A stretch of 58,120 nucleotides of DNA, taken from IMG/VR virus record IMGVR_UViG_3300027969_000117, positions 1 through 58,120 of that record. One strand, written 5' to 3'. Within the stretch, counting starts at the first letter, position 1. Every line of letters starts with the position of its first letter. Shown here in pieces: positions 20,328 to 51,681 of this stretch. The DNA is from a virus. The position numbers and the translations under genes were made by a program. The notes beneath the pieces are model-generated. The model saw only the letters and a list, made by a program, of their open reading frames with translations. It did no database searches and was not told the DNA's origin.

Positions 20328-20471
20328 ATCGGGGTATACATACCCGTACTCTTTGTACATCCATTGAATAAAACGTTCAACTTCTAATTTTGGTCCTACA
20401 GTATCCTTGTAGACTTCATAGGCTTTTTGTATTCGTTTTAACATTTCTGATTCAGTAATAGTTCCGCTCAT
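20304..20471 (-). CDS. Small hypothetical protein downstream of the helicase (55 aa)
   Basis: ATG 20471 overlaps the TAA of the helicase gene (TAATG), indicating coupling. The product MSGTITESEMLKRIQKAYEV continues into a Trp/Tyr-rich 'VERFIQWMYKEYGYVYPDL' helix. No family recognised. Last gene of the replication operon; its 3' end overlaps the convergent AlgH-like gene by 24 nt. Confidence 0.65.
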   Translation of the reverse strand: MSGTITESEMLKRIQKAYEVYKDTVGPKLEVERFIQWMYKEYGYVYPDLKPSRND

Positions 20472-21925
20472 TAATCTTTCTCCGAATTTAAACTGGAAAT
20501 TAAGTCCCTAATTTTAGCATTTCCAGTAGCTTTTACTTTGGCAATTCCAATACCCTCAGTTGGGTCAGTTCTAATTTCGCCAGTTTCCTGATCGACAACT
20601 GTGCTGGTCTTTTTAAGATTTAAATTTTGATAAACTGAACTAGGGCCAGTTGTTTGTTTTGTCTGCCCACTAGGCGTATAGTTTGATTCACCTTCTTCAC
20701 CTAGGTCTGAAATACGTAATGTATCTACATCAAACTCTAAATCAACCTTTTGTCCTACACCCGAGCTAGAACGTGTTTTCATAAACTGAATTTGATAGCG
20801 TCCACGCTCTTTCATAGCACGACTTGTAAAGATACCAATAACGTTATCTGCTGTCATAATCTTTGACAAGCCACCAGAAATGTGACTGTGATCAAACTCG
20901 ATTTCTTCAACAGCACTACGATTTAATTGTGATGCTGTAACTGTAATGCATTTTGTTTCCATTGCTAAGTTACGAATTTCTTCCGATACATACTTGTCCT
21001 TAACAAACAAATCACTTGGGCTAACCTTAACGCTTAACGGCATCATTAAGTCCAAGTAGTCAATCAAAATAACATCGGGAGCAAAGCCTTTCTTAACTTG
21101 ATATTCTTTCAAATACGCACGGATGTCATTACAGTTTTTACCCGATGGCATATATTTGATCTGCATGTCGCCTGCTTTCTTTTGAAGCATCTTAACCTTA
21201 AGTTCAACATCATCAATATTCTTAAACACATCTCTAGTACCGATGCCTGTCATCATACTGTCAATACGCATCGACACCAAGCCCTCTGCCAATTCAAATG
21301 TAAGGTACAATACATTAAGTCCTGCCAGTGCCCAGTTGACACCTAAGTTTGCCAAGAACAAAGATTTACCGCCGCCTGAGCCAGCACAGAAAATGTTCAA
21401 CTCACCTCGGTTAAATCCGCCATACAGCTTCTTATCGATACTAGGCCATCCTGTACTAATCTGCCCATTCCCATCTTTTAACTTGCTCAATCGTGCTCTC
21501 GGATCTTCAAAATAATCTGTACCCATATCCTTGTTTAACGATATCTGGATAGCATCCTTGATCAACTTTTCAACAGGGTTATAGTCACCTGCTTCAATCA
21601 TGTCAGCACTTTTTAAAATTGCTCTTTCAAGTGCTTTGTGTCTACTAAACTTTTCAAAGTCGTCTAGTAACCATTCATAGTTTTCTTTAGGTACTTGTGC
21701 CGCAATAAAGTCAGTGCCGCATGTTGCGTTGACAATATTTGTCTCTGGCATAACTTTATATTCATCAACGTATTTCTTAATAAACGTTGCGCCATCTTGT
21801 AGTTTTCTATCAAAACTTTCAGGATCAAAGATGTTAGAACATCGCATATAAGTTTCGGCATCGCCTAGAAACATATCGAGATATAGTTTTTGTATTTCGC
21901 TATTATAGTTTGTTTTTTCACTCAT
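20471..21925 (-). CDS. 41: Replicative DNA helicase, DnaB/gp41-like (484 aa)
   Basis: RecA-type helicase core: GGFNRGELNIFCAGSGGGKS (Walker A, about residues 169-188), VILIDYLDLM (Walker B, about 283-292), and TASQLNR (about 325-331, the motif 3 'SQLNR' of DnaB-family helicases). Residues 1-140 form the N-terminal helical domain. Length agrees with T4 gp41 (475 aa). It should form the hexameric 5'-3' replication helicase and work with the primase encoded immediately upstream, whose stop overlaps this start by 8 nt. Confidence 0.93.
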   Translation of the reverse strand: MSEKTNYNSEIQKLYLDMFLGDAETYMRCSNIFDPESFDRKLQDGATFIKKYVDEYKVMPETNIVNATCGTDFIAAQVPKENYEWLLDDFEKFSRHKALERAILKSADMIEAGDYNPVEKLIKDAIQISLNKDMGTDYFEDPRARLSKLKDGNGQISTGWPSIDKKLYGGFNRGELNIFCAGSGGGKSLFLANLGVNWALAGLNVLYLTFELAEGLVSMRIDSMMTGIGTRDVFKNIDDVELKVKMLQKKAGDMQIKYMPSGKNCNDIRAYLKEYQVKKGFAPDVILIDYLDLMMPLSVKVSPSDLFVKDKYVSEEIRNLAMETKCITVTASQLNRSAVEEIEFDHSHISGGLSKIMTADNVIGIFTSRAMKERGRYQIQFMKTRSSSGVGQKVDLEFDVDTLRISDLGEEGESNYTPSGQTKQTTGPSSVYQNLNLKKTSTVVDQETGEIRTDPTEGIGIAKVKATGNAKIRDLISSLNSEKD

Positions 21926-22913
21926 CCATTCTCTCCAGTTTCTTTTTCTCTAGTTCTATTTTTATCTTGTTTGTTTCACGAGCACCTATGATCGTGAGCA
22001 AAGTATATACTCGGCCATATCGCTTTACAGCATCTGCTACGTCTTTAATATCATGTTCCCATTCTGGCAAACTAATTGCCCAATCGTTATCCAGTGCGGC
22101 TTTTATGAGTTTAGCACCGGGTTTATCTCTGTCAGGAACTACTATAACTTCTTTACCTAATTGACGTAATCTCATTACATGAGCTTCATTAGGTTCATTA
22201 GTCATGATGGCAACACCGTCAACAGCAATAGCGTCAAACTGACCTTCGACTACAATTACATACTGTCTACTATTGTCCTGAGCATCAATGTTAAACAGAT
22301 ATGTGCCTTGACTATCAGTTAGGTACTTTGGCTTACCGTCTTTAATTTTTCGACCAGTATATCCCACAATTTTACCATTGTTATAAAACGGAATTAATAC
22401 ACGGTCTTTATATCCAGGAGCAGGCGTCCACATCCAGTTATACCATTCTAACTTAAATCCCCGTTCAATTACATAGGTAACAGCATTAATAAAATCAGGA
22501 TCAGTACATCCTTCGTTGGCTAGTTCTGTAAAGGTTTTGCTGTCGTCTGGTAATGAGCGTTCTTGTAGTGTTAGTTCGACAACTTTTCTAACTGTTGGCA
22601 AATCTTCTCGTTCACGCATTGCAGTTAGCATTAGCTCAGACACTTTGCTATCTGGCATACCTAACCAATTAAACAACTGCTTGGTATTATTTGATAATAG
22701 TTTACCTTTAGACCAACCTGCTTTGAATCCACAATTAAAGCAATGATATTGAAAGCCTCCAATTGGATTCATTAGGACGCCGCCCCGCTTTCTATCATCG
22801 GGTTTTTCTCCTTTATGGTGGCAACACACAGCGTTGAAACTAATCCAGCCGCTGGGCGTTTGCTTTCTTTTTGGAGGTAAGAATAATTGTAGTTCTGCGT
22901 CAATGACACTCAT
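21918..22913 (-). CDS. 61: DNA primase, gp61-like (331 aa)
   Basis: N-terminal zinc-binding region with CCHHKGEKPDD and YHCFNCGFKAGW (about residues 30-65). The Toprim core follows: VIVVEGQFDAIAVDG (acidic Glu-Gly, about 218-232) and VIVVPDRDKPGAKL (DxD-like, about 255-268). Length fits T4 gp61 (342 aa). It would synthesise RNA primers for lagging-strand replication and lies directly upstream of the helicase in one operon. Confidence 0.92.
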   Translation of the reverse strand: MSVIDAELQLFLPPKRKQTPSGWISFNAVCCHHKGEKPDDRKRGGVLMNPIGGFQYHCFNCGFKAGWSKGKLLSNNTKQLFNWLGMPDSKVSELMLTAMREREDLPTVRKVVELTLQERSLPDDSKTFTELANEGCTDPDFINAVTYVIERGFKLEWYNWMWTPAPGYKDRVLIPFYNNGKIVGYTGRKIKDGKPKYLTDSQGTYLFNIDAQDNSRQYVIVVEGQFDAIAVDGVAIMTNEPNEAHVMRLRQLGKEVIVVPDRDKPGAKLIKAALDNDWAISLPEWEHDIKDVADAVKRYGRVYTLLTIIGARETNKIKIELEKKKLERMDE

Positions 22914-23790: not shown

Positions 23791-24177
23791 ATGACCACTA
23801 AGGACGAATTCCAAGCAAAATTTCCATTTATTACCTGTATAAAAATAGGTGATAGTGAATACGTGGGCATCATTATTAATTTAGATGACAATGTTGTTAG
23901 CATCTATAACTTTTCTGATATTAGATCCGAGCCCGATAAGCAATCGTTTTTAGAATTAGGTGATGTTTGGTGGTGGGAAAGTAATCGTAAGATTCCTATT
24001 AACATTTTCTTAAAACAAGAAATGACAATGTATAGAAGTTGTATTAAAACTTTTAATAGTAAAGACGTTGAGGTTGTGTTTGGACCAACAGTGAACCTTA
24101 GTGAAATTGCCGAGAAGCGTGTTAAGAGAAAATCAATTCAACTTGTTAGAACACCTAACAAACGTCCAAGTCGTTAA
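23791..24177 (+). CDS. Hypothetical protein (128 aa)
   Basis: Lone plus-strand gene inside the minus-strand replication block, divergent from 23774 and convergent with the DnaE-like gene (4-nt overlap). Sequence MTTKDEFQAKFPFITCIKIG then IINLDDNVVSIYNFSDI suggests a small beta barrel. ELGDVWWWESNRKIPINIFL is a conspicuous, probably conserved segment that I associate with T4-like phage unknowns. The C-terminus is basic (RVKRKSIQLVRTPNKRPSR). No Shine-Dalgarno or plus-strand late element is obvious. Confidence 0.6.
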   Translation: MTTKDEFQAKFPFITCIKIGDSEYVGIIINLDDNVVSIYNFSDIRSEPDKQSFLELGDVWWWESNRKIPINIFLKQEMTMYRSCIKTFNSKDVEVVFGPTVNLSEIAEKRVKRKSIQLVRTPNKRPSR

Positions 24178-24755
24178 CTAAATCCGTAACTTATTTTTTC
24201 ACAGATTAAATTCATCTGTACTACAATTGCCACGGCATAAGCAACTGCGTGAGCCTTCTTAAAGAAATATTCGTCAGTAGTCGGACGGATCCATACTTCC
24301 TTCATTATCGTCTGCCAGTCCTGGCCAATCAAGTGTCTCTTTGCCGGACGGATCATAGCGAGGACCGCACTTAATTGTTCCACGGAAGTAGGGCAAGTCT
24401 TCCTCAGTACCGTCCCATGCCCGTTCAAATGAAATAACAGATTCACAAAGTCGTCTTGTAAAAGTAAATCCCATAGTGGTTCAGTCTCCATTAGTTGTTT
24501 CAGGTGTTCTTCGTTTCTTACACCTTCATAGACTCCGACATTTAGAAAGTCAATTTTAAAATAACCTCTACGTTCTGCCTCTTTATAATCTATTGTACTT
24601 ATTCCTGTCAGAGGATTGTACGGAATAGAAGTACAATATACACCGGTATTGTGCTTTTTAAAAGTTCCATCTTTATCAGTCATAGCCGCTGGGATATGCT
24701 TGATAACATCAAGTGCTTTCTTTCTGTCAGCAAAGTCGATATCAATATCAGGCAT
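24174..24755 (-). CDS. Miniature DNA polymerase III alpha (DnaE)-like protein (193 aa)
   Basis: ATG 24755 is used; longer TTG or GTG starts overlap the upstream gene. In DnaE order it retains MPDIDIDFADR (PDxDxDF, the two catalytic aspartates D401/D403 of E. coli DnaE), KKHNTGVYCTSI, DYKEAERRGYFKIDFLNVGV (the third catalytic Asp, KxDFLG), LLFHLNGHGTVLRKTCPTSV with AVLAMIRPAK, and KKAHAVAYAVAIV (SHAxAYA). The whole is 193 residues against more than 1,100 in DnaE; PHP, thumb and beta-binding parts are absent. Polymerase or nucleotidyltransferase activity is possible but unproven. Confidence 0.75.
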   Translation of the reverse strand: MPDIDIDFADRKKALDVIKHIPAAMTDKDGTFKKHNTGVYCTSIPYNPLTGISTIDYKEAERRGYFKIDFLNVGVYEGVRNEEHLKQLMETEPLWDLLLQDDFVNLLFHLNGHGTVLRKTCPTSVEQLSAVLAMIRPAKRHLIGQDWQTIMKEVWIRPTTDEYFFKKAHAVAYAVAIVVQMNLICEKISYGFS

Positions 24756-25149
24756 TAGGTAAATCCGATTGTCCACCGTTAGCAAGTGATAACATCAAAC
24801 TATATTGTTCGTATGCCTTTTTAACAGCTGGATATCTATCACGCAAATATTTTTCGTTTTCTTTTTGTTCCATTAGCATTTCAAACATATTGTAATGACC
24901 TTTTTTACTCATGTTGTTAAACACTTCATTTTCAAAATGAGCAATGCGTTCTAGTTCACTTTCACTAATTTCAATTGTATATAATGTTTCAGTTTCAAAG
25001 TCATTTGTTATTGAATCAATTCGATTATAATCGTTTTGATATTGAAACCATTGTACATTCATTTTAGTAAATTTGTAAGCACGTTTTCCGGAGTCTAATA
25101 CTTTAATTCCGTGTTTGTGACAAAATTCTTTTGTAGTGATATCAGTCAA
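24748..25149 (-). CDS. Hypothetical protein next to the mini-DnaE (133 aa)
   Basis: Overlaps both neighbours by 8 nt, so translational coupling in the replication operon is likely. The N-terminus (MTDITTKEFCHKHGIKVLDS) is HTH-like, followed by helices with HFENEVFNNMSKKGHYNMFE and a long charged helix (LMEQKENEKYLRDRYPAVKK). No family recognised. Tight coupling suggests it works with the DnaE-like protein. Confidence 0.65.
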   Translation of the reverse strand: MTDITTKEFCHKHGIKVLDSGKRAYKFTKMNVQWFQYQNDYNRIDSITNDFETETLYTIEISESELERIAHFENEVFNNMSKKGHYNMFEMLMEQKENEKYLRDRYPAVKKAYEQYSLMLSLANGGQSDLPNA

Positions 25150-25840
25150 TTCCAGTCTCCTTACAAACTTCTTTTACAAGAATTGCGTCAGCAGGATAAT
25201 CTTTAAATTTTGCCAACCAGTGAGGTACATCAAATGCTGGTTCAATAATGTCCATCTGTTCGTCGTTAAACTTTCCAATCATATCTCTACCAGACCTACA
25301 ATTTAATACAAGCCATGGACTAATATAACCGTTTCGAATATCATTTACGGCCCTGTTTAGATTTACATATAAGAAGTAGTGTTGAAATTCTGCGTTGTTA
25401 GCATCGGCCCATTCCATCATATGTTTTAAACTACGTTGTACTGCCGCTTCAACCGGTTCTACTTTTAACATTTCAAATAGGTATGTGTCGTATAATTCAT
25501 CACGGCACCAATGGTCTAATTTAACGCCACTTCTAATTACAAAATCCATGAACTTTTCTGGATATAAGGGCATTACATTGTTGACAAAACTTCCAAATTT
25601 AACAAACGCATTATAGTAAGGGCTCTTACAAAAATCATCGTATGTCTTGTCTTTTTTAGCACCTTGTGTTAATCTAAAGAACTTGTTAAACGCAAGGAAT
25701 CCAGCTTGTACACGCTTTTCATCTTTTTGCATTGCTCGACGTTTTGGCTCGCACATGTGAGCATACAAGGTCTTTTCTTTCATAAAGGCCTTGCCACAAT
25801 GTACGCAACCAAAAGGTTGTTCTTCTAATTTAATAATCAC
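25142..25840 (-). CDS. Zinc-finger phage protein (232 aa)
   Basis: Residues about 8-33 (PFGCVHCGKAFMKEKTLYAH followed by MCEPKRR) form a C2H-C type zinc finger. The remainder is helical and aromatic (YDDFCKSPYYNAFVKFGSFV, VKLDHWCRDELYDTYLFEML). I recognise the 'CEPKRR...QKDEK' plus 'SPYYNAFVKFG' combination from T4-like phage genomes, where its function is unknown. Four-nt overlap with the upstream gene; part of the replication operon. Confidence 0.75.
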   Translation of the reverse strand: MIIKLEEQPFGCVHCGKAFMKEKTLYAHMCEPKRRAMQKDEKRVQAGFLAFNKFFRLTQGAKKDKTYDDFCKSPYYNAFVKFGSFVNNVMPLYPEKFMDFVIRSGVKLDHWCRDELYDTYLFEMLKVEPVEAAVQRSLKHMMEWADANNAEFQHYFLYVNLNRAVNDIRNGYISPWLVLNCRSGRDMIGKFNDEQMDIIEPAFDVPHWLAKFKDYPADAILVKEVCKETGID

Positions 25841-26292
25841 TCGTATTCTTTCCGTTGCTTTTTATCAAAGCCCATTTTATCAAATAGTTCGTCTTTATCT
25901 TTCTTATCCATCATACTAGCCATTAGTTTAATATCTTCCATTTTTCTAGCAGGATAGATTTCACATAATAGTTTTTCAATCTTATTTGCTTTTTCTTTCT
26001 TACCAGCGGCTAGATATGGATGATATGCCGGAACTCCTACTCCAGTAACAGCAAACAATTTCCATAATAGTGCTTTATGATTTTTACTTAACTCCCAATG
26101 ATTTTTATTAACACACTCATTGGTCATTTCGAGGAAGTGAGCTTGAACATCATAGTCACCTTGTACGCTGGCTGTATATCTCATAAGAACAAACGGACTA
26201 AAAGATTTCTTTTCTTCATCCGTTAGATTATCATAAAAGTTATAATTTTTTGTGTCAACTGCTTTGAGTTCTCTTTTAATGTCAAGTGCCAT
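25837..26292 (-). CDS. Possible clamp-loader small subunit, gp62-like (151 aa)
   Basis: N-terminal MALDIKRELKAVDTKNYNFY, then SFSPFVLMRYTASVQGDYDV and NECVNKNHWELSKNHKALLW resemble the 'sPFvl.r..s' and 'N..vNk.f..l.k' segments of clamp-loader gp62-type proteins in T4-like phages. The C-terminal helical half (KIEKLLCEIYPARKMEDIKL) fits too. The match is from memory and not exact. No gp44 or gp45 gene is in the window. Confidence 0.5.
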   Translation of the reverse strand: MALDIKRELKAVDTKNYNFYDNLTDEEKKSFSPFVLMRYTASVQGDYDVQAHFLEMTNECVNKNHWELSKNHKALLWKLFAVTGVGVPAYHPYLAAGKKEKANKIEKLLCEIYPARKMEDIKLMASMMDKKDKDELFDKMGFDKKQRKEYE

Positions 26293-27653: not shown

Positions 27654-29111
27654 TTAGTATTTTACCTTTTCAACTGAGAACGGATATTTCGCCTCTTTAT
27701 AAAACTTCTTACGTTCTGTAAGATGTTTTTTCGCATATTTGCTACTAGCAGTTAAGTCCCAAATTTGTACAAAATCCTTGTCATCGGCTTTTCTTATCCC
27801 CCGTCCAATGCTTTGGATAACACGGACAAAACTTTTTCCGGGTTCCAAAAGAACCATATTAAAAATACGAGGGATATTAATACCCACAGCGGCAACACCA
27901 TAGGTAGCCACAATAATCTTGTTATCGCTTGTCGCCACGTCATCGTATTCTTCCTTGCGATCCTTTGTTTTTACTTCACCACTAATGAACACAGAATTTT
28001 CTATGTTACTAGTTATTATACGCCCTGATTCAATTCTGTCAACCAGTACTAGTGTATTCCCAGTTTCACCAATACCCTTAACTAAGTTACTAATAAAATT
28101 CATTCTATCTTCATTGGTAACTAGATATTTTAGTTCTTCGGGGTAACTGCCAAACTCTTTCCATTCGGCTGTTTGAATAATATTAACATGACAGGTACTT
28201 AATACTCCAGACTCTTGTAGTGTATGAGCCTTAACTTGATTAACAACTTCTCCTAGGCCGCACTTGATATTTTGAAAATCAATATCTTCTTTAGGCACAG
28301 TTCCTGTTAATCCCCAACGAATGGCACAATTTGCTAGATGATTAGTTAATAGTTTTTTAAGTACTTCGGCCTTGGCCATGTGTACTTCATCGACCATAAC
28401 AGTTTGAACACCATCAAGAAAAACTGCCAATGTTAACGCATCGTCATCAGTGGAATCTTTGGATTTTTTGTCTAAAATATTTAAACTTTGCCATGTACAT
28501 ATAGTATGTGTTTTGTCCAAGTTCTTTCTATCACCGTAGTACACTCCAACGTCTAATCCACAGTTGATAAAATCTTCTTCTGTCTGTTCAACAAGGCTTT
28601 TGTTAGGAACAATAGTTACTGTTCGACCATATTTTTCACAAATTTTTGATAACGTTGCGGTGGTAATAGTCTTACCAAATCCAGTAGCAATCTCTTGGAT
28701 ACATTGCGGGTTTTCGAGGAACATATTAACTACATCGACTTGGTCGCCTCGTAGTCTAATCTTTTCTCCGGCAAATCGATGGCCTTCTGGCCAAGTTGTA
28801 TCACCCCAAAAATCTTCAGAAACTTTGGCAAATTCTAATACCGGACTATTACGATGATCCTCAATTTCTGGGTCGTAACCTAAGCGGACAATTTCTTCAA
28901 TTACCTCTGGTAACAGACTCATGTACGTTGTACCACCTAGACCAAAAAAACTTGTACAGCCATCCCAACGGCCTAATTTGTACGCAGGAAGATATCGAGC
29001 TTTTTGGTCGAAATATTTGAATTTTTTAACCAAAGACTTGCGTGTGTCAAGATCTAAATTTTCTATCTTAACATTAACTTCATCTTTAATTACAATTTTA
29101 CAATATTTCAT
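27654..29111 (-). CDS. uvsW: UvsW-type recombination helicase (485 aa)
   Basis: SF2 helicase: CIQEIATGFGKTITTAT (Walker A, about residues 137-153), TVMVDEVHMAKAE (DExH box, about 237-249), WGLTGTVPKE (motif III), VATYGVAAVGINIP (motif V) and VIQSIGRGIRK (motif VI). Length near T4 UvsW (503 aa). The N-terminal KARYLPAYKLGRWDGCTSFF matches the UvsW DNA-binding domain. It would unwind R-loops and branch-migrate recombination intermediates. Overlaps the upstream HARP-like gene by 14 nt. Confidence 0.93.
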   Translation of the reverse strand: MKYCKIVIKDEVNVKIENLDLDTRKSLVKKFKYFDQKARYLPAYKLGRWDGCTSFFGLGGTTYMSLLPEVIEEIVRLGYDPEIEDHRNSPVLEFAKVSEDFWGDTTWPEGHRFAGEKIRLRGDQVDVVNMFLENPQCIQEIATGFGKTITTATLSKICEKYGRTVTIVPNKSLVEQTEEDFINCGLDVGVYYGDRKNLDKTHTICTWQSLNILDKKSKDSTDDDALTLAVFLDGVQTVMVDEVHMAKAEVLKKLLTNHLANCAIRWGLTGTVPKEDIDFQNIKCGLGEVVNQVKAHTLQESGVLSTCHVNIIQTAEWKEFGSYPEELKYLVTNEDRMNFISNLVKGIGETGNTLVLVDRIESGRIITSNIENSVFISGEVKTKDRKEEYDDVATSDNKIIVATYGVAAVGINIPRIFNMVLLEPGKSFVRVIQSIGRGIRKADDKDFVQIWDLTASSKYAKKHLTERKKFYKEAKYPFSVEKVKY

Positions 29112-30306
29112 TATCTTCTAATTCGTCTACCCACATGATAGAATTGTATTTGTCATCTAGAATCTTTTTTAGTGACTGATGACTACCCAACGGATCACAA
29201 CTAATAACTAGACCAAAATCTATGCCACTTTTTACCAGTGGCTTTTTAATACGTCTACTAACAAATACAACTTTCATGTCTTTTCTAATGGGGGTGTTTA
29301 ATTTGTTATCTCTAACATAATCATTAAACGCTTTATTTGTAATATTGTCAACCCTAAACATCACCGTCATATCATTTTCAGTGTATCCCAGCGAAAATAA
29401 GTACCTGTGCCATTTTTTTAGGTGGCCTAGTTCTTGGTGTTCGGGGATAACAACCATGATAGAATCAATTGAATTAATCAATTGAGTAAAACAGGTAAGC
29501 TCGTGCTCTTTTGCCTTAACAGTCATTTCGTGACCAATTTCCTTTTTCAGGAATTTTCTGGTGATAGGCGAAATTTCCGAGGAATTTATGAAATTTTCAC
29601 ATTGTTCGTCCCACACGTCAATACCATATAGCTTGGCCAAAAACAGGGCATCGAGGATTTTGTCACTAGTAGGTAACGGCACACTAGAGTGAGCGTTCTT
29701 GAACGTTGGCTTGTTGTTTTCAATAACCATGGACGGAACATAGTCCTCCATTTTTTCCATAATTTCTTGGATTTTTTCATAAAATTCCAAAAATTGTGAA
29801 TCTGCCGAAAAACCAAGTGGAATCAGGTTATTGCCTAACCAATTGATACTACCTTCAGTGAGGCTGAACATCCATGTCTTCTCATCTGGGTTCCAGTCGG
29901 CCCAATCACCCGACTTGTCATTTTTAAATTCTCTCACTTTTTTGACCAAATTTTCGTCATATGGGAAAGATACCTTAATGTAGTGTTTAAATTTAAACTC
30001 AGAGTTCTTTACTACTTCAATGCGTTTGGTCTGTGGTGTAAATTCTCTTAGAGGCTGACCCCAAATTTCATTATCGATGATCCTATCAACATTGTGGCCG
30101 AGTTTAACAACTAACTGTTGACGATATTTTCGGCATAATTTCAAAGCCAATGACCCCTGCTTGATCGTAAGGGCTCGACCCATCATAATTTGATTGTCAA
30201 AACTTGAAATAATTTTTTCGTCTGGTTTGAAGACAGTTGCCTGTCCCCATGCCATTGATGAAATCAAGTCCTCGATAGTCTTAGGAGATTGGTTGTTGAA
30301 GATCAT
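29098..30306 (-). CDS. HARP-like domain protein upstream of UvsW (402 aa)
   Basis: Residues about 108-180 (FKHYIKVSFPYDENLVKKVR, DWADWNPDEKTWMFSLTEGS) resemble the HARP domain of SMARCAL1/annealing helicases: a conserved 'F.Y......vk......W.p..k.W.f'. The C-terminal part (VVFVSRRIKKPLVKSGIDFG then LVISCDPLGSHQ) resembles a receiver-like alpha/beta segment. No helicase motifs. Overlaps UvsY upstream by 4 nt and UvsW downstream by 14 nt, so a split partner of UvsW is plausible. Confidence 0.6.
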   Translation of the reverse strand: MIFNNQSPKTIEDLISSMAWGQATVFKPDEKIISSFDNQIMMGRALTIKQGSLALKLCRKYRQQLVVKLGHNVDRIIDNEIWGQPLREFTPQTKRIEVVKNSEFKFKHYIKVSFPYDENLVKKVREFKNDKSGDWADWNPDEKTWMFSLTEGSINWLGNNLIPLGFSADSQFLEFYEKIQEIMEKMEDYVPSMVIENNKPTFKNAHSSVPLPTSDKILDALFLAKLYGIDVWDEQCENFINSSEISPITRKFLKKEIGHEMTVKAKEHELTCFTQLINSIDSIMVVIPEHQELGHLKKWHRYLFSLGYTENDMTVMFRVDNITNKAFNDYVRDNKLNTPIRKDMKVVFVSRRIKKPLVKSGIDFGLVISCDPLGSHQSLKKILDDKYNSIMWVDELEDNEIL

Positions 30307-30758
30307 ATTGTAATATCTTCCATGCCTGCGGTGCGAAGTTTAATAATGTTGGACAGTTGCCATTGTTTGATGTCAATTGCCTTAATGATACCGAGCCAGT
30401 GGTTACGTAGCAGGGCAAATTCGTTAATGATCTTGTCCATGTCTACAACGTCGGCTTCACCGTCAACATATTTTTCAACATCTCGACTGCTTAATGCTCG
30501 TTGGTAGTTTTCAAGGTATTTCTTAAACACCTTAGAACGTAGTCTGCGAGATTCTATGTTGAGGTACTCAAGGATTGCTTCGATCTCTTGAAGTTGATTG
30601 AACCTATGCTCAACAATACCAGGAAGAGCGGCAGAGGCTCGTTCTATGTTTCCATAGACTTTGATCTCTTTCCGCGCTTCATCTAGCTCTGTATAATAGT
30701 GGTCAATACAATCTGGGAGATGAGCAATGTCCTTGCTCACCTTTGAGTACCAACTCAT
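30303..30758 (-). CDS. uvsY: UvsY recombination mediator (151 aa)
   Basis: Helical protein with IEAILEYLNIESRRLRSKVF, YQRALSSRDVEKYVDGEADV and INEFALLRNHWLGIIKAIDI-KQWQLSNIIKLRTAG, which are the characteristic UvsY segments. Length is close to T4 UvsY (137 aa). It should load UvsX onto gp32-coated single-stranded DNA; all three genes are in this operon. Confidence 0.9.
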   Translation of the reverse strand: MSWYSKVSKDIAHLPDCIDHYYTELDEARKEIKVYGNIERASAALPGIVEHRFNQLQEIEAILEYLNIESRRLRSKVFKKYLENYQRALSSRDVEKYVDGEADVVDMDKIINEFALLRNHWLGIIKAIDIKQWQLSNIIKLRTAGMEDITI

Positions 30759-31008: not shown

Positions 31009-32073
31009 TTATGCTTCCTCACTGTCCTCAGTAATTTTTGATGTAGTTAAAGATTCCGCCGCCTTAGCATCCCACTCGTTCATAATAACGTGTAGTTTGT
31101 CTTCGGTCCAATTCTTACGGAACTCAGCAACAATTTCACCAGTATCTTTACTGGTGTATGCTAATTTATTCCCAACTTTAGATAATACACCCATTTTCTC
31201 GAACATGTCAACTAAACCGGATGTAGGACTCATACCAGTTGAATATGGAATCTCAACTTGTACTGATTCGAACGGTTTGGCATAGCGAGTTTTCATAATT
31301 TTACATGCTGAACGAATACCCAATACTTCAGTTACCTTGTTGCCGTCGGCATCAACTTTAAGTTTGAGTTTTTTCATGGCAACTACAATAGAACTTGCGT
31401 AAACAAAGCCTTGTCCACCACTAATCTTGTCGTCTGGGTCAAACATATCTTGGCTTGCGTATGTGTGATTTGTACAAACCATACCTACGTTATAACTGCC
31501 AAACATGTTCACACAGTTACGAACAAGTGATGTAAGTGCTTTGGGTTTACGACCCATATCACCTTTCATTTCACCTGCTTCAAACTGATTAACGTCTGTA
31601 GGAGTTAGCAACATGCCCAAAGAATCAATTACAAACAACACCTTTGGACGTTCTTCCAACGGCATTACTTTATACTCTTTCATGAACTCTGAAATAGTTT
31701 TAGCTACATCGTCAATCATGGCCATATTAAGTTTAAGCAACTTATCTTCAGCTGTATCAACACCCAAATCTAGCAACCACTGTTTGTCCAAAGCATTTTC
31801 GCTGTCAACTAGGACAACAAAAATACCTTGTGCTTGAGCGGCTTTAATAATGTTACCGGAACAGATATATGATTTACCTGCGCCTGATTCACCCGCAAAA
31901 ACTGTTACTTTACCCAGGGGAACTCCCTTAAAGAAGTCCCCTGAGATAAGATAGTTTAGGGCGTAGTTACCGGTTGAGATCCAATCGGTTGGGTCGTTAA
32001 ACCCGATTCCCAAGCCATCAATAGATTTAGTGATAGACTTGCGGAACTTCGAAATATCGAAGGCCTTTGCCAT
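31009..32073 (-). CDS. uvsX: UvsX, RecA-like recombinase (354 aa)
   Basis: Walker A TVFAGESGAGKSYI (about residues 57-70), Walker B-like KVLFVIDSLGML (about 143-154), and a DNA-binding loop region at GMVCTNHTYASQ with ISGGQGFVYASS. Length is near T4 UvsX (391 aa). It forms the presynaptic filament for recombination-dependent replication. Two nt from the acidic gene downstream. Confidence 0.95.
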   Translation of the reverse strand: MAKAFDISKFRKSITKSIDGLGIGFNDPTDWISTGNYALNYLISGDFFKGVPLGKVTVFAGESGAGKSYICSGNIIKAAQAQGIFVVLVDSENALDKQWLLDLGVDTAEDKLLKLNMAMIDDVAKTISEFMKEYKVMPLEERPKVLFVIDSLGMLLTPTDVNQFEAGEMKGDMGRKPKALTSLVRNCVNMFGSYNVGMVCTNHTYASQDMFDPDDKISGGQGFVYASSIVVAMKKLKLKVDADGNKVTEVLGIRSACKIMKTRYAKPFESVQVEIPYSTGMSPTSGLVDMFEKMGVLSKVGNKLAYTSKDTGEIVAEFRKNWTEDKLHVIMNEWDAKAAESLTTSKITEDSEEA

Positions 32074-32084
32074 AGTCTATCTCC

Positions 32085-33086
32085 TTACTCTGACTTGCTA
32101 CGATTACGGATCATTGCCAGAATGTTCTGAGCACGATCACTTGCGTCACCACCTGCGGATTCTGCTACTGGAGCAGGAGCAACCTTAGCTACTGGAGTAG
32201 CTGGTTCTTCCCACGGAGCATCTTCAGACTCGTCTGCTACCGGAGCCGGAGCTGCCTTAGCTGGAGCAGGAGTACTATTACCAGTTGCTTGACCACTACC
32301 GCCCATACCGGCTGGTTTGAAATATTGTCCCCAACGTTCCATATCAAATGCTTCACCGTCAACTGACGCTTCAAACATTTGCATCATAACTTTGAGTTCA
32401 ACGTCGCCGGGCTTCTTAGGCAAGAAGTCTTTGAGGTTAAATGGGCCGTGTTGCTTGATTGCCGCATTTTCTTCTTCACTCAAGGCACGTTCACGACGAG
32501 CCCAGTTAGAAGTAGAATAGTCTGCGTAACCACCCTTGCTTGTTTTAACAATCTTAAAATCCAAACCACGAACGTAGTCTGTTGGGATTTCTTCAATCTC
32601 AGAATCCATCAAAGCGGCTTTGATGATATTGTGAATTTGACTGCCGATAATGAAACGGCGGATTGGATTCTCAGGAGTCTTATCTTCCTGGAATTTTGTA
32701 TCTACTACAAAGCCTTGATACAAGTATGAACGCTTTTTCCAGTACTTACGACCCATATCTTCTAGGTTTTTATCCTTGAACCATGGACGTACTTCTGTTA
32801 GAATTGGACAGTTCTCGCCCCACATTTCCATACAAGGAACTTGTACAGTAACAGGTTTTGAGTTTGTTTCACCTTTGACTCCGGCGAATGGCAATTTGAT
32901 CATTGCTCGTTCGATCCAGAAAAAAGTGTTTGAAGGGTCTGCGTCAGGTAAGAATCTTACTGTTGCTGTTTGACCTTCTTGGATGTTCCAGTGTGGAAAG
33001 ATTGCGTTGTCACCACCGCCCGTGCCGCCGGTGTTTTGTTGACTTGCTTGTTGAAGTTTTGCGCGGATTTCTGCTAAAGTTGCCAT
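32085..33086 (-). CDS. 32: gp32-type single-stranded DNA-binding protein (333 aa)
   Basis: N-terminal helix MATLAEIRAKLQQASQQ (cooperativity domain type), then the OB-fold core with TATVRFLPDADPSNTFFWIE, PCMEMWGENCPILTEVRPWF (zinc-binding Cys/His area), YWKKRSYLYQGFVVDTKFQE. An acidic, Ala/Pro-rich C-terminal tail (ESEDAPWEEPATP) is typical for protein partners. It coats single-stranded DNA at replication forks. Preceded by a consensus sigma-70 promoter embedded in a terminator on the minus strand. Confidence 0.92.
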   Translation of the reverse strand: MATLAEIRAKLQQASQQNTGGTGGGDNAIFPHWNIQEGQTATVRFLPDADPSNTFFWIERAMIKLPFAGVKGETNSKPVTVQVPCMEMWGENCPILTEVRPWFKDKNLEDMGRKYWKKRSYLYQGFVVDTKFQEDKTPENPIRRFIIGSQIHNIIKAALMDSEIEEIPTDYVRGLDFKIVKTSKGGYADYSTSNWARRERALSEEENAAIKQHGPFNLKDFLPKKPGDVELKVMMQMFEASVDGEAFDMERWGQYFKPAGMGGSGQATGNSTPAPAKAAPAPVADESEDAPWEEPATPVAKVAPAPVAESAGGDASDRAQNILAMIRNRSKSE

Positions 33087-35475: not shown

Positions 35476-35483
35476 TATTTAGT
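35476..35483 (-). promoter_or_regulatory. Late promoter
   Basis: Minus strand ACTAAATA; the TAA is also the stop codon of the terminase gene. It ends 5 nt before ATG 35470. Confidence 0.75.
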
Positions 35484-37062
35484 TAAAACTGTTGATGTAG
35501 ATGGGCATGGGTAGATCCATATCGTCCAGCAACCGGTCTTCTGTCATTTTTGCGTAAACAGCTGGATCCCAATCTCCTAGCATCATCATCATACGTATTG
35601 CTAGTAAAAACGCGGCCACTAGGTCATCATGCTGTGTTTCTTTTGCTTCAAATGTAACGCCACGAGCAATAAATGTCTTAAGTTCTGATATTAAACTACG
35701 ACTATGAATTGTAATTTGGCGCTGTTCAACCATCTGTTTTAGCTTGGCACACGCATTAATCTTGCTGGTATTTGTCGTGTTAAATCCCTTACGGAAACGT
35801 CTAACATGTCCTCTTTTGACTGGTTCGCTGAGAAACATGCCAGGAATAGTTTCTTCTCCCATTTCGCTGATAGCAACTAGCGCGGCTTCGCCCATTGTAT
35901 TATTTTCTACTGAGAAGTATAGATTAGGTGCCTGAGAGCATTCTTGATCGATATACTTACATATATCTCGTAAGATTCTAACCTGTGCCTGTACTGTGGT
36001 CATATTGTGATGCCACTCTGCTACCTGTATCATACTGGGTATTTCAAGTACTTCAATTGCGGAATAGTCTCCACCTGTTCCCATAGCTGGGTCATGGGCA
36101 ACAATGTAGATGGCAGATGGATCTATCTTTTTGTACCATCGAACTTGCCCCATTTTCATAATTGGTTCAGTTGATTCTAATCCTGCTAAACTAATAGAAC
36201 TAATAAGTGTCTCGTCGAATACTAAGAATTCACACTCGTGCTCACGACGGAACCGTTCTTCCCCAATACGTGACATTTCTTCTGCTTTCCACTTATCATC
36301 GCGATCAGGATGTTCGCTCCAATGTGCCTTGAACGGAAAGAATCCGTTCTTTCCAACTTCTTGTTCGTTACCAAACTCGTCTGTGCGTTTGTTTGCTTCG
36401 TACCATATTAGCGCAAATTGATCTTCGTCCGAGTTAGGAGTTGATGTAATAATTGCCTTACCACCAGTTGCTAGTGTAGGTGAAATAGATGTCCAGAATT
36501 CACTAGCCACGTTAGGCGGAACGAACGCAAATTCGTCGGCGTATAGTAATGATAGCGACATACCACGACCTGTTGTTTCTGTAGTTGTCTGTGCTACAAT
36601 ACGTGATCCATTATCAAATTCAATACTTTCTTTATTATAACTTGTAACACCGGGCCGTATAAAGTTAGGACATAGTTCATAAGCATAACGAATACGTGTC
36701 ATAATTTCTTTAGCACCAGTGTACTTGTGCGCGGCAATTAGAATGGTACTATCTGGAATAAACATCGCATACCATAGTAAATATCCGCCGGCTGTTGTAG
36801 TCTTGCCTGTTTGACGAGGTAACATATTAACATTAAAACGATGTCCGTGATAACTGTCAATTAGTCTTTTTTGATATTCAAAAGGAGCATACAACAACTT
36901 ACCTTTAGTAGGATGTTGGATATGGAAGAAATGATCTAAGAAATAATGTGGCCCATTAACAGGATCCATACAGTTCTTTAAATGCTCAATTTCTTCTTCA
37001 GTCCACTTTTGTGTAGAGTGGGCTTTTTTAACGAGTTGACTATCTAAGTTTTTACTTGGCAT
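35479..37062 (-). CDS. 17: Terminase large subunit, gp17-like (527 aa)
   Basis: ATPase Walker A NMLPRQTGKTTTAG (about residues 79-92), Walker B SLLYADEFAF (about 171-180) with catalytic Glu, and coupling motif ITSTPN (about 204-209). The C-terminal nuclease has acidic motifs VAHDPAMGTGGDYSAIEV, YFSVENNTMGEAAL and ETQHDDLVAAFLLA. Length is near T4 gp17 (610 aa). It packages DNA into proheads with the small subunit. Predicted leaderless late expression. Confidence 0.95.
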   Translation of the reverse strand: MPSKNLDSQLVKKAHSTQKWTEEEIEHLKNCMDPVNGPHYFLDHFFHIQHPTKGKLLYAPFEYQKRLIDSYHGHRFNVNMLPRQTGKTTTAGGYLLWYAMFIPDSTILIAAHKYTGAKEIMTRIRYAYELCPNFIRPGVTSYNKESIEFDNGSRIVAQTTTETTGRGMSLSLLYADEFAFVPPNVASEFWTSISPTLATGGKAIITSTPNSDEDQFALIWYEANKRTDEFGNEQEVGKNGFFPFKAHWSEHPDRDDKWKAEEMSRIGEERFRREHECEFLVFDETLISSISLAGLESTEPIMKMGQVRWYKKIDPSAIYIVAHDPAMGTGGDYSAIEVLEIPSMIQVAEWHHNMTTVQAQVRILRDICKYIDQECSQAPNLYFSVENNTMGEAALVAISEMGEETIPGMFLSEPVKRGHVRRFRKGFNTTNTSKINACAKLKQMVEQRQITIHSRSLISELKTFIARGVTFEAKETQHDDLVAAFLLAIRMMMMLGDWDPAVYAKMTEDRLLDDMDLPMPIYINSFN

Positions 37063-42582: not shown

Positions 42583-45500
42583 TTAAACGCCGGCCTTAAT
42601 TTCGCCAGTGTTTTTGAGACGTAAAGGAATGTAGATAAACTCTACTGCCTTAACTGGCTCAATCGCTACGTCTAACCATAGTTCACTACGATCAATTCTG
42701 CTTGGAGTGTTGTTAGATTCATCGCAAACTACGATGAAGTCATACAATGCTCGTTGACCTACTAGTTCTAGTAATAGGCTTTCTGCGGCACGTTTGATCT
42801 CGTTACGTGTAATTTTATCATTTGGCTCAAACAAGTATGGCTTGGCCAAGATGCCCATTTGCCTACGTAGGAATGCTACTAGACGAGCAACGTTGATACG
42901 ATCCAAGCTACTTGCGTTCTTAGCACGAGTGTATTGACCCATGTTAACAACACCAACACCTGTTAGTGTAGCAATTGGGTTAATCTTAACACTTGCTAAA
43001 ACACTACGTAGGCTTTCTGGTAAAGCTGTTGTACGGAACTCGTTGTTAGCGTCTAAGTAACCTACGCTACTTGCGTTATCAACACCGCCTCGGCGTGTAC
43101 CCGCTGGAGCAAACCATTGATAACTCTTCTGGTCGCTTGTAGCAATAGTACGTAACATCATGTGACTTGGTGGAACAACAATAAAGTTTCCTGTATTGTC
43201 TGTTGTGTAACCACTTGGGTAGAACATGGCCATGTACTCGTCATAACTTGTTCCGCCAACATCACCGTTGTCAAACGCACCGTTTACGTTAAAGCCCCAC
43301 TCACTTAATGCTGTGCCAGTTGGTGCTAAACGGAATGGTGTGTCGCCAACAACAAATGCTGTTTGTCCACGATCTGCGTTTAGTGCAATTTCATTTTGGA
43401 TGGCTTCTGGATAACCAGGAGTAGACATTAAGTTAAACACTAGAGTATCTGTGTCACGGATTGCTGAACTTGTATCAATTAGGGCTTTTAGGCCTGCTAC
43501 TACAAATCCGCGCTGTGCGTGACGACCAAATTTACCAGAACCGTTTTCATTGTTAGGTGTTACACTAACCCAACGATCTGCGTTGTATAATGTTGCGCCG
43601 CCTGAACCGTCCATGTTTTCGTTTTGATAACGAATGTTTTTACCGTCGTTAGCATCAACGTTGATATAGTTCTTAACAAACTTCTTAACGTTAAACCCAC
43701 TACGGCGTAAGTTCCATAGATGTGTACCTTTTGGATACAATGCTGGATCTGGAGCATCTGGGTCTACGTAGTTGCTTGATAACAATGTCTTAATTGATGA
43801 AGCATCTGTAGCGTAACCAGTATTTGCCCAACGAGCATTAGCAAACACCCATGCGTTTGGACTTGTCTGATCGCTCGGATCTTGTTTGATCCACTTTAAT
43901 GTTGTACCGTTCCAAACATAAATGTTCTGACCGTACTCTTCTAAAGAAGCTGTGCTGATCCAAATATCACCGTTAACTAAGTCAGTACCATCGCTGTGAC
44001 CACCGTTTAACTTAGGAGCAACTGATGCTACAATCGGACCGTTAATGTCTGTGCCTGGGAAAGCGTTTTTATAACCAACCCACTTAGAGCCATCGTGATA
44101 CATAATATCAACTTGGTCAACTACTGAGCTGTACCATAATTGTCCGTCTACTGGATCTGTAAATGGTGCTGTTTGTTTTGCTTCAAATACTAATGGCTTC
44201 CAATTAGAAGCATGGAAGTCAAACTCATCTGCATCGTAGTCGCCTTTATAGTATAGGTTCTTTGTACCTGTTTCTACACCAGACTCTGAACGTGCCCAAG
44301 CAACAAATCCCATATCTGCTAAGGGAGTACGAACATTATCAGTTAAACGAATCTCTCCGCCACCTGTGTGATTGATTGCCAATTGGAATGTTTCTGGATT
44401 ATAACTTGCGCTCAATCCATATAACGCACTTTCGGCACCTGTGTTGTTTAATAACAATTGAGCAACAGTTTCTAAAGTGTCGCCTGGTTCAACTTCAATG
44501 TTTACAACGGCTCCAAATACGCCCTGACTACTAACTTTAATATCAAAGCTAGAAGTTGATGTAAATGTCAATGCGGACGTTCTACTTGGAGTCATAACGG
44601 TTGTAAAACCAGTTGCGTTACGACGATACATCTTGAAACTTACTAGTGCCGGAGAACTAGGAGCGCCTGTACCATGATCGTAATTTTGTTCAACGTATAT
44701 CTGTCCTGCTGGAATTGCCTTGCCGTCACCAACTGGATCAATACCGTAGATTGCCGCTTCCGGGCTAGCATAGATCGGAGCCTTGCTTGTGACCCATGAC
44801 TTTGTAGTTGCGTTGTATGATTTAACTATCCAATCAGCGCCTTTGTTAGGGCTTGTTGTCTTAACGTAAACAGAACCACTTGGGTTTGTACTAAAATCTG
44901 GATACTGTGTATGCGGACCTTGGAATAAACTTACTGCTCCGTATGTACCCACTGTTAGTCCTAAAGTAGTTAATAAAGTAGCTGTTGAACCAACCTTAAT
45001 CTCAATGCGGCCATCACGAGCATCAGTATCCGCTGTACTAATAGAAACTGTAGGAATAGAAGTATATCCGCTACCGTCGTCAGTTACAGCAATACCAGTA
45101 ATTCCGCCACTAACAATAGTAACGGCGCCTAAGTGAGCGTTTCCGCCAATACTAACTGTAGGAGGAGTATTACCATCGTATTCAAAACCAGGTGCTGTTA
45201 TATTAATCATTTCTACCTTAAATCTTAAAGATAGTGCAGCATTTGTTCCTGTTCCTGTGTTGACTGTTGTAAGTGCGTTCGAAACAGAAGGAATAGTATT
45301 AGTATATTCTCCGCGATCAGCAAATGAGAACCCAGTAATAGAACCGCTAGCATTAACACCAGATACTGTAAGTGATGCAGCAGTGCCGTTTCCACCCAGT
45401 ACCGTTAAAACGTTGCCTACAGCATAATTTGTACCAGTATTAACAAATGTTGCGGTATCAACAGTCATTACGGCAATAGCTGTCGCGCCACTTGCTCCGT

Positions 45501-46419
45501 TGCTTGATGCGGTTTGGTCAGCATATAGTTCTAGAACATTACTGGTTCCTACACGAGCATTAACACCTTTTGTACGCATTGTTGCATTAATACTAGATGC
45601 CATTGCAATTATGTCAGTACCGCTCAGTGTAATTTCTTGTCCGTTGATTAGCATTGTTGCGCCATTTGGCAATGTACCTGCTGCAACAGACTTTGTTCCC
45701 TTAACTACTGGGAAGCTTGTTTGCCATGCTGTTGCGTTAAACGAACTACCAGAGCTAAATCCAGTTTCTGTATTTGACCCAACTTCAACCCAATTGCCGT
45801 CTTTGTTTTTGTACCATAGTGTAATCATGTTAGCACTTGTTGCGACAATTGCGTAAGTTCCTGCTACACCAAATGCTTGTTTTGGCATATCACCGTCAAG
45901 CAATGCAGCTTTAGTTGTGTTATCAATAACTGCTGGAATTTTGTTAACAAATTGACTTGTTGTTGCGTTCCATTCAAAAATACCCCATGAAGTATTTGAA
46001 GTTGTATCTAACCAAAATGTTCCATCAGCGGCTTCGCCAACTGGAACACCGGATGTTGGTAATAGTGATCCTAAATCAACATCAGCGCGGGTAATATAAG
46101 CACGTGAACTTACGCCCAGTAAACTATATGCGGCTTGTAGGCCGTATTCGTTTAATTCTCCGCCGTTAATCGGATTGCCGCCAGCGTCTGTATAGAACAA
46201 TGGTGTGCCGAATGTATCTGTTAAATCTCTTTGACTTGTAATCAAATATACTCGTCCAGCATTTTCTTTTATTGTACCAACTGCGGTGCCTGTGCCGCTG
46301 GCATTTTGTTTGTCTTCTGCTGAAGCGACGATAATTAGTGGAACAGTACCTGGTGCGGCTGGAGTGTAAAAACTCTCGTCGATAACAGTTACTTGTACGC
46401 CTGGTGAACTTAGTGCCAT
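42583..46419 (-). CDS. 18: Tail sheath protein, gp18-like, oversized (1278 aa)
   Basis: N-terminal MALSSPGVQVTVIDESFYTP and C-terminal QMGILAKPYLFEPNDKITRN, ELVGQRALYDFIVVCDESNN, SELWLDVAIEPVKAVEFIYI mark the contractile sheath family. T4 gp18 is 659 residues, so about 600 residues are inserted between sheath domains. The insertion includes 'GxGY..P.V.I' repeats (DDGSGYTSIPTVSIS) and several W-rich modules such as NGDIWIS...YVWNGTTLKW. These probably project outward from the tail. A leader with GGGAG precedes the ATG. Confidence 0.92.
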   Translation of the reverse strand: MALSSPGVQVTVIDESFYTPAAPGTVPLIIVASAEDKQNASGTGTAVGTIKENAGRVYLITSQRDLTDTFGTPLFYTDAGGNPINGGELNEYGLQAAYSLLGVSSRAYITRADVDLGSLLPTSGVPVGEAADGTFWLDTTSNTSWGIFEWNATTSQFVNKIPAVIDNTTKAALLDGDMPKQAFGVAGTYAIVATSANMITLWYKNKDGNWVEVGSNTETGFSSGSSFNATAWQTSFPVVKGTKSVAAGTLPNGATMLINGQEITLSGTDIIAMASSINATMRTKGVNARVGTSNVLELYADQTASSNGASGATAIAVMTVDTATFVNTGTNYAVGNVLTVLGGNGTAASLTVSGVNASGSITGFSFADRGEYTNTIPSVSNALTTVNTGTGTNAALSLRFKVEMINITAPGFEYDGNTPPTVSIGGNAHLGAVTIVSGGITGIAVTDDGSGYTSIPTVSISTADTDARDGRIEIKVGSTATLLTTLGLTVGTYGAVSLFQGPHTQYPDFSTNPSGSVYVKTTSPNKGADWIVKSYNATTKSWVTSKAPIYASPEAAIYGIDPVGDGKAIPAGQIYVEQNYDHGTGAPSSPALVSFKMYRRNATGFTTVMTPSRTSALTFTSTSSFDIKVSSQGVFGAVVNIEVEPGDTLETVAQLLLNNTGAESALYGLSASYNPETFQLAINHTGGGEIRLTDNVRTPLADMGFVAWARSESGVETGTKNLYYKGDYDADEFDFHASNWKPLVFEAKQTAPFTDPVDGQLWYSSVVDQVDIMYHDGSKWVGYKNAFPGTDINGPIVASVAPKLNGGHSDGTDLVNGDIWISTASLEEYGQNIYVWNGTTLKWIKQDPSDQTSPNAWVFANARWANTGYATDASSIKTLLSSNYVDPDAPDPALYPKGTHLWNLRRSGFNVKKFVKNYINVDANDGKNIRYQNENMDGSGGATLYNADRWVSVTPNNENGSGKFGRHAQRGFVVAGLKALIDTSSAIRDTDTLVFNLMSTPGYPEAIQNEIALNADRGQTAFVVGDTPFRLAPTGTALSEWGFNVNGAFDNGDVGGTSYDEYMAMFYPSGYTTDNTGNFIVVPPSHMMLRTIATSDQKSYQWFAPAGTRRGGVDNASSVGYLDANNEFRTTALPESLRSVLASVKINPIATLTGVGVVNMGQYTRAKNASSLDRINVARLVAFLRRQMGILAKPYLFEPNDKITRNEIKRAAESLLLELVGQRALYDFIVVCDESNNTPSRIDRSELWLDVAIEPVKAVEFIYIPLRLKNTGEIKAGV

Positions 46420-51673: not shown

Positions 51674-51681
51674 TATTTATC
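51674..51681 (-). promoter_or_regulatory. Late promoter
   Basis: Minus strand GATAAATA, 5 nt before ATG 51668, overlapping the oxygenase 3' end. Confidence 0.75.

What the first reader, a model, noticed from the sequence alone, without database searches (positions are those of the whole stretch)
24174..24755. Miniature DnaE-like protein that keeps all three catalytic aspartate motifs
Five DnaE segments occur in the right order in 193 residues: PDIDIDF, HxTGVY, KIDFLN, a fingers-like segment with RPAK, and KKAHAVAYA. PHP, thumb and other parts are missing. It may be a minimal C-family polymerase or nucleotidyltransferase. It is coupled to an unknown 133-aa gene and lies in the replication operon, so it is unlikely to be a decaying fragment.
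Basis: partly seen in the sequence, partly recalled or inferred. Interest (0 to 1): 0.75.

Follow-up and report, generated by a model that had tools for sequence, protein, structure and literature searches.

The report
Half of a split minimal polymerase
The small gene is real and conserved, but it encodes only the metal-binding half of a miniature bacterial-type DNA polymerase that T4-like giant phages make as two separate proteins, a system already described from sequence in 2021 whose activity, as far as I could find, has not been tested.

Summary
The ORF at 24174..24755 (-), 193 aa, carries the DnaE motifs in order; its aspartates D3/D5/D69 match E. coli D401/D403/D555 and are invariant in 159 non-redundant homologues. 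It belongs to PHROG_11778 (E 9e-67). Its confident AlphaFold model (pLDDT 93) aligns over residues 1-190 with C-family polymerases only (Z up to 9.7; next unrelated fold 3.5).

The interpretation needs one correction: it is not a minimal polymerase by itself. It lacks the palm part with the nucleotide-binding GxGRGS motif. That part is a separate ~172-aa protein (PHROG_11127) encoded elsewhere, present in all 10 isolate genomes tested that carry this gene. The two models cover adjacent, non-overlapping stretches of DnaE (E. coli 280-393 and 400-781), joined at the loop before PDxDxDF, with no intein. The partner is not in this 58-kb fragment.

This split minimal Pol III alpha was described by Iyer et al. 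2021 (PMC7824862). The 133-aa 'coupled' gene is a local neighbour (17/205 loci). Heterodimer formation, activity and role beside the phages' family-B polymerase are inferred.

The parts
24174..24755 (-). C-terminal (Mg2+-binding palm plus reduced fingers) half of the split minimal Pol III alpha, 193 aa, PHROG_11778
   Evidence: PHROG E 9.4e-67; AF2 pLDDT 93; C-family-only structural matches, Z 6.1-9.7
24732..24752 (-). PDIDIDF: D3 and D5 (= E. coli D401, D403, catalytic) and D7 (= D405, the DnaE-type Asp that is Asn in PolC)
   Evidence: Invariant in 159 nr95 sequences; E. coli numbering and DnaE/PolC distinction from PMC3919608; register from Taq 461.. and M. tuberculosis 419..
24636..24653 (-). 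HNTGVY palm strand (residues 35-40); follows the PDIDIDF unit almost directly because the thumb is deleted
   Evidence: H35 invariant in 159, G38 invariant in the 118-row alignment; strand E32-40 in the model
24540..24557 (-). KIDFLN: K67 and D69 (D69 = E. coli D555, third catalytic Asp)
   Evidence: K67 and D69 invariant in 159 nr95 sequences; strand E68-72
24339..24350 (-). RPAK (residues 136-139), counterpart of the RPG region of the DnaE fingers
   Evidence: R136, P137, K139 invariant in 159; aligned to the RPG region of M. tuberculosis DnaE1
24234..24260 (-). KKAHAVAYA (residues 166-174), counterpart of NKSHAAxY in DnaE fingers
   Evidence: H169 invariant, K166 158/159; aligned
25142..25840 (-). 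232-aa protein of unknown function (phrog_11058), conserved upstream neighbour; possible functional associate
   Evidence: 204 of 205 C-half loci with enough flank
25837..26292 (-). 151-aa protein of unknown function (phrog_11758), conserved upstream neighbour
   Evidence: 205 of 205 loci
23791..24177 (+). 128-aa convergent protein of unknown function (phrog_11637), overlapping the 3' end of the C-half gene by 4 nt
   Evidence: 220 of 224 loci; overlap distribution
24748..25149 (-). 133-aa gene overlapping the C-half start by 8 nt; NOT a conserved partner
   Evidence: found in 17 of 205 loci

Best explanation
The protein is the C-terminal half (metal-binding palm strands plus a stripped-down fingers domain) of a minimal C-family (Pol III alpha/DnaE-type) DNA polymerase made as two separate chains. 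It most likely pairs without covalent linkage with the separately encoded ~172-aa N-half (PHROG_11127), which brings the GxGRGS nucleotide-binding part of the palm, so that one active site is formed across the interface: catalytic Asp D3/D5/D69 on this chain, the GS motif on the other. The enzyme would act as an accessory polymerase (primer extension, gap filling or repair) in a T4-type replisome whose main polymerase is family B. Shown: homology, conservation, fold of each half, the split point, co-occurrence of the two halves, purifying selection. Inferred: binding of the halves, polymerase activity, the role in the cell, and that this phage's own genome carries the N-half (the record is a 58-kb fragment).
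For: PHROG_11778 E 9.4e-67. D3, D5, D7, H35, K67, D69, R136, P137, K139, H169 invariant in 159 nr95 homologues. AF2 pLDDT 93; top 15 structural matches all C-family polymerases over model residues 1-190, Z 6.1-9.7, then a drop to 3.5. N-half: standalone ORF in all 80 IMG/VR loci, ending at or within 9 residues of EFLK/R; GxGRGS in 57/57; AF2 pLDDT 91.9; its residues 71-174 match C-family polymerases only, E. coli 277/281-393, adjacent to and not overlapping the C-half range 400-781. Both halves, one match each, in 10/10 isolate genomes. N and C distance matrices correlate, r 0.92 over 17 genomes (mostly shared phage ancestry). No PHP domain in 13/13 genomes; family-B polymerase in 14/14. dN/dS 0.08. 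Prior description: PMC7824862.
Against: No binding or activity data were found. The pair could not be modelled as a complex. The N-half is not in the window. One 543-kb contig has an N-half and no detectable C-half, though its completeness is unknown. Without thumb, clamp-binding motif, OB and HhH parts, ordinary processive synthesis is doubtful.
Confidence: 0.68

Rival explanations
1. The C-half works alone as a minimal nucleotidyltransferase, template-dependent or not.
For: All metal-ligand aspartates are kept and the chain folds confidently by itself.
Against: It lacks the GS nucleotide-binding part of the palm, which is conserved on the partner present in every isolate genome tested.
Confidence: 0.06
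2. Catalytically inert scaffold or regulator: the two halves keep the fold to bind primer-template, primase or helicase, without synthesis.
For: Thumb, clamp-binding, OB and HhH parts are gone and a family-B polymerase is present to replicate the genome.
Against: Exact retention of all catalytic Asp and the GS motif over wide divergence, about 37-84% identity, is unexpected for a dead enzyme.
Confidence: 0.14
3. Decoy or inhibitor of the host replicase: the pieces bind host Pol III holoenzyme parts and help shut down host replication.
For: The fold is that of the host replicase palm/fingers.
Against: It lacks the known Pol III interaction regions (PHP/epsilon site, clamp motif, CTD); the catalytic residues are kept; it lies beside primase, helicase and UvsW rather than among early takeover genes.
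Confidence: 0.06
4. Relic or decaying fragment of a captured host dnaE gene.
For: Short, lacks most DnaE domains, no Pfam match.
Against: Intact in 236 loci with constant size 186-216 aa in the alignment; dN/dS 0.08; conserved synteny.
Confidence: 0.01

Closest known systems
Split minimal Pol III alpha of group 2.2 jumbo phages (Iyer et al. 2021, Viruses 13:63, PMC7824862); PHROG_11778 (C-half) and PHROG_11127 (N-half)
   Same: Same protein family, same division into an NTP-binding N-terminal unit and a Mg2+/template-binding C-terminal unit encoded far apart, same company of a family-B polymerase.
   Different: Nothing that sets this sequence apart as a different kind. Added here: junction mapped to the FL(N)..PDxDxDF loop, absence of inteins, conservation in 159 sequences, models of both halves, neighbours, and presence in 141-kb Alishewanella phages.
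Bacterial DnaE (Pol III alpha, C-family)
   Same: Palm/fingers fold and order of motifs, D401/D403/D555 equivalents, and D405 (DnaE-type, not PolC-type).
   Different: Lacks PHP, thumb, part of the fingers, HhH, clamp-binding motif, OB and CTD; in two chains.
Cyanobacterial DnaE split by a split intein
   Same: A Pol III alpha encoded by two distant genes (split cyanobacterial sequences are mentioned in PMC3919608).
   Different: In the phage proteins the N-half stops 0-9 residues after the conserved EFL[KR] and the C-half starts 1-18 residues before the first Asp, leaving no room for intein parts; the cyanobacterial enzyme is full-size and split elsewhere (my knowledge).
Adjacent two-gene Pol III alpha of Tenacibaculum phage Larrie (Cbastvirus)
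   Same: DnaE chain broken at the same FLN / PDIDSDF junction.
   Different: Two adjacent genes of near full size (about 515 and 676 aa), with a C-terminal extension on the N part.

Membership tests
Split minimal Pol III alpha, C-terminal subunit (PHROG_11778; Iyer et al. 2021) | Sequence match to the family over its whole length | tested here: met
   E 9.4e-67, residues 4-188 on 8-194 of 197
Split minimal Pol III alpha, C-terminal subunit (PHROG_11778; Iyer et al. 2021) | Partner N-terminal NTP-binding protein encoded elsewhere in the same genome | tested here: inconclusive
   Met in 10/10 isolate genomes and in contigs of 180-270 kb of near relatives; not present in this 58-kb fragment
Split minimal Pol III alpha, C-terminal subunit (PHROG_11778; Iyer et al. 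2021) | Family-B polymerase in the same genome | tested here: inconclusive
   14/14 related records; the window is a fragment and no such gene was recognised in it
C-family DNA polymerase (DnaE/PolC) | Three catalytic Asp (E. coli D401, D403, D555), absolutely conserved in the family (PMC3919608) | tested here: met
   D3, D5, D69 invariant in 159 nr95; register
C-family DNA polymerase (DnaE/PolC) | Pol beta-like palm with C-family fingers | tested here: met
   AF2 model matches C-family chains only, Z up to 9.7 over 188 residues, rmsd 3.5
C-family DNA polymerase (DnaE/PolC) | GxGRGS nucleotide-binding motif of the palm in the same chain | tested here: not met
   Absent from this protein and from six-frame translation of the window; on the separate N-half in relatives
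C-family DNA polymerase (DnaE/PolC) | PHP domain and thumb | tested here: not met
   No PHP match in 13 related genomes; about 40 residues here against about 141 in M. tuberculosis DnaE1 between the PDIDIDF and KIDFL regions
C-family DNA polymerase (DnaE/PolC) | Template-directed DNA synthesis | not testable with these tools
   -
Split-intein DnaE (cyanobacterial type) | Intein fragments flanking the break | tested here: not met
   Termini too short for intein parts in the 57 N-half and 118 C-half sequences aligned

The most novel reading that the evidence does not exclude
The two small proteins form an obligate heterodimeric DNA polymerase, the smallest C-family polymerase, with one active site shared between two separately encoded chains, acting beside primase and helicase as a dedicated primer-extending enzyme (a Pol alpha-like role) that hands over to the phage's family-B replicase.
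Probability: 0.15. Interest if true: 0.75.

Novelty: new member of a known kind. Interest (0 to 1): 0.4.

Why it matters
If active, it would be the smallest known C-family polymerase and a rare case of a polymerase active site built from two unlinked gene products, with the metal ligands on one chain and the nucleotide-binding loop on the other. It would define the minimum core of the bacterial replicase and show phages running a C-family and a B-family polymerase together. Iyer et al. see it as a possible model of the ancestral enzyme; reduction of a captured DnaE is as compatible with the data here. The pair is directly testable, since both proteins are small.

Tried and rejected
Split intein or trans-splicing: rejected, no room for intein parts at either terminus. 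Natural fusion of N and C, or adjacent genes: none among 90 N and 88 C ORFs, and no locus held both. N-half inside the window: no GxGR[GA][SA] motif in six frames. The 133-aa gene as obligatory partner: rejected (17/205). A DnaQ/epsilon-like proofreader as constant companion: rejected as universal, found in 5 of 14 records and not in the window. The tRNA-hydroxylase match (8fhc) has no shared motif or fold support and was treated as chance. Relation of the 133-aa gene to phrog_10066 (E 0.0074) was too weak to use. Pairwise-distance agreement of the halves (r 0.92) is mostly shared phage ancestry and is not evidence of binding.

Full report
WHAT WAS CHECKED. The ORF lies on the minus strand, ATG 24755 to stop 24174, 193 aa. 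It belongs to PHROG_11778, labelled 'DNA polymerase', 197 positions, E 9.4e-67; the long phage Pol III alpha family phrog_405 follows at 4.4e-07. Pfam has no match and NCBIfam only sub-threshold DnaE matches, which explains why relatives are often called hypothetical or, in some RaK2-like records, 'putative membrane protein'. Close relatives occur in 63 isolate phage records and in more than 560 IMG/VR stretches.

WHAT THE WINDOW IS. It is a 58,120-base IMG/VR virus record, treated here as a fragment. Its gene set is that of a T4-like myovirus: DnaB-type helicase 20471-21925, primase 21918-22913, UvsW-like helicase 27654-29111, UvsY-like 30303-30758, UvsX-like 31009-32073, gp32-like SSB 32085-33086, terminase 35479-37062, tail sheath 42583-46419. 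The same arrangement (SSB, UvsX, UvsW, conserved unknown genes, this gene, a convergent small gene, a structural-type gene, primase, helicase) is seen with variations in Phosso, Atu_ph07, Paride, RaK2 and GAP32.

CONSERVATION. In 159 sequences below 95% identity to each other, D3, D5, D7, H35, K67, D69, R136, P137, K139 and H169 are invariant. By register with Taq (M1 at 461) and M. tuberculosis DnaE1 (M1 at 419), D3/D5/D69 correspond to E. coli D401/D403/D555, and D7 to D405. PMC3919608 states that the first three are absolutely conserved in the C-family and that D405 is typical of DnaE and is Asn in PolC, so the phage protein is of DnaE type at this site. dN/dS is 0.08 (median of 245 pairs) and about 0.12 for the window against its three nearest relatives. 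It is not a decaying fragment.

FOLD. AlphaFold2 on a 118-row alignment of natural sequences gives pLDDT 93.0, pTM 0.78. Foldseek's best PDB matches are C-family polymerases (best E 6.8e-4; TM on the query about 0.4-0.5, lowered by the missing inserted domains). VIA-align gives Z 6.1-9.7 with 181-192 residues aligned for 15 C-family entries and then falls to 3.5. About 190 model residues span about 380 residues of E. coli DnaE (400-781), so roughly half of that stretch is deleted. The sequence alignment to M. tuberculosis DnaE1 places one deletion between the PDIDIDF and KIDFL regions (the thumb) and one within the fingers.

THE MISSING HALF. C-family polymerases bind the incoming nucleotide with a GxGRGS-type motif upstream of PDxDxDF. 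That motif is not in this protein, nor anywhere in the six frames of the window. In all five complete relatives first tested, PF07733 matches over its cut-off at one other place, tens to hundreds of kilobases away. That place encodes a ~172-aa protein (PHROG_11127) with G[VL]GRGSSV[AS]S and an end at EFLK/R, equivalent to E. coli DnaE residues up to 392/393. Its model (pLDDT 91.9) matches only C-family polymerases over its residues 71-174, E. coli 277/281-393, Z up to 11.8; its first ~70 residues are phage-specific and untested. The two proteins therefore cover DnaE 280-393 and 400-781 without overlap, and the break falls in the short loop just before the catalytic aspartates.

CO-OCCURRENCE. 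Every one of ten isolate genomes tested has one match for each half: Phosso, Atu_ph07, Paride, RaK2, GAP32, Slicko01, Vibrio phage 2.275.O, fENko-Kae01, RAS14, SCTP-2. Among IMG/VR contigs with the C-half, the three largest (270, 223, 181 kb) have the N-half and shorter fragments do not. Of nine contigs above 250 kb found through the N-half, eight have the C-half; the exception is a 543-kb contig, G025. No fusion was found. The genomic distance varies widely: about 11 kb in Slicko01, 34 kb in RaK2, 184 kb in Atu_ph07 and G002. Pairwise distances of the halves agree (r 0.92 over 17 genomes), as expected from common descent of the phages.

MECHANISM. Most likely the two chains assemble into one active site: the C-half supplies the two-metal aspartates, the K67/D69 strand and the reduced fingers; the N-half supplies the GS nucleotide-binding loop. 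Every genome examined also has a family-B polymerase (14/14) and none of 13 a PHP domain, so the split enzyme is probably an accessory polymerase rather than the replicase. The neighbourhood of primase and helicase suggests primer extension or gap filling; this is inference. Whether it polymerises at all is untested as far as the searched papers show.

PRIOR ART. Iyer et al. [quoted passage not shown] PMC5259590 noted a truncated 172-aa alpha-like protein, CBB_328, in phage CBB, and PMC6102473 an alpha subunit, gp316, in Atu_ph07. Klebsiella phage fENko-Kae01 ENKO_317 carries an HHpred note to E. coli Pol III alpha, and Phosso's two genes are both annotated DnaE-like. The present sequence is a new member of that known kind.

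NEIGHBOURS. The constant neighbours are phrog_11058, phrog_11758 and the convergent phrog_11637, all of unknown function. In many relatives the gene that ends at the C-half start is a different one, with overlaps of 0-13 nt common, so translational coupling as such is conserved better than the identity of the upstream gene.

VERDICT. Observation confirmed; interpretation right on homology and constraint, incomplete on function, because the protein is half of an enzyme. Known kind, experimentally open.

Noticed in passing
L361:600-1522 (Tenacibaculum phage Larrie, ON950054): Near full-size Pol III alpha in two adjacent genes broken at the same FLN / PDIDSDF junction; the N part carries a ~50-residue extension after FLNSGRMGEY that looks faintly like a Hint/intein-type segment (by eye only).
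   Followed up: partly
G025 / L107 (543-kb IMG/VR contig): Has an N-half and a family-B polymerase in separate ORFs (549 and 572 aa) but no C-half detectable even at E 10; either an incomplete record or a real loss.
   Followed up: partly
L355:4611-5123 and L355:15962-16573 (Alishewanella phage Slicko01): A 141-kb phage carries both halves about 11 kb apart, so the split enzyme is not confined to jumbo phages.
   Followed up: partly
window:25142-25840, 25837-26292, 23791-24177: Three proteins of unknown function (phrog_11058, phrog_11758, phrog_11637) accompany the C-half in over 98% of loci; the first has a C2H2-like Cys/His start (sub-threshold Pfam).
   Followed up: partly
window:29098-30306: 402-aa ORF between the UvsY-like and UvsW-like genes with no Pfam or PHROG match.
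   Followed up: no
window:13879-17157: Collagen-like GAT/GXY-repeat tail fibre of 1092 aa.
   Followed up: no
window:26556-27149 and 51677-52243: Two 2OG-Fe(II) oxygenase genes, the first inside the replication gene cluster.
   Followed up: no
window:19764-20327: AlgH-like (DUF179) protein in a phage.
   Followed up: no
window:42583-46419: Tail sheath of 1278 aa, longer than the 915-position PHROG model.
   Followed up: no
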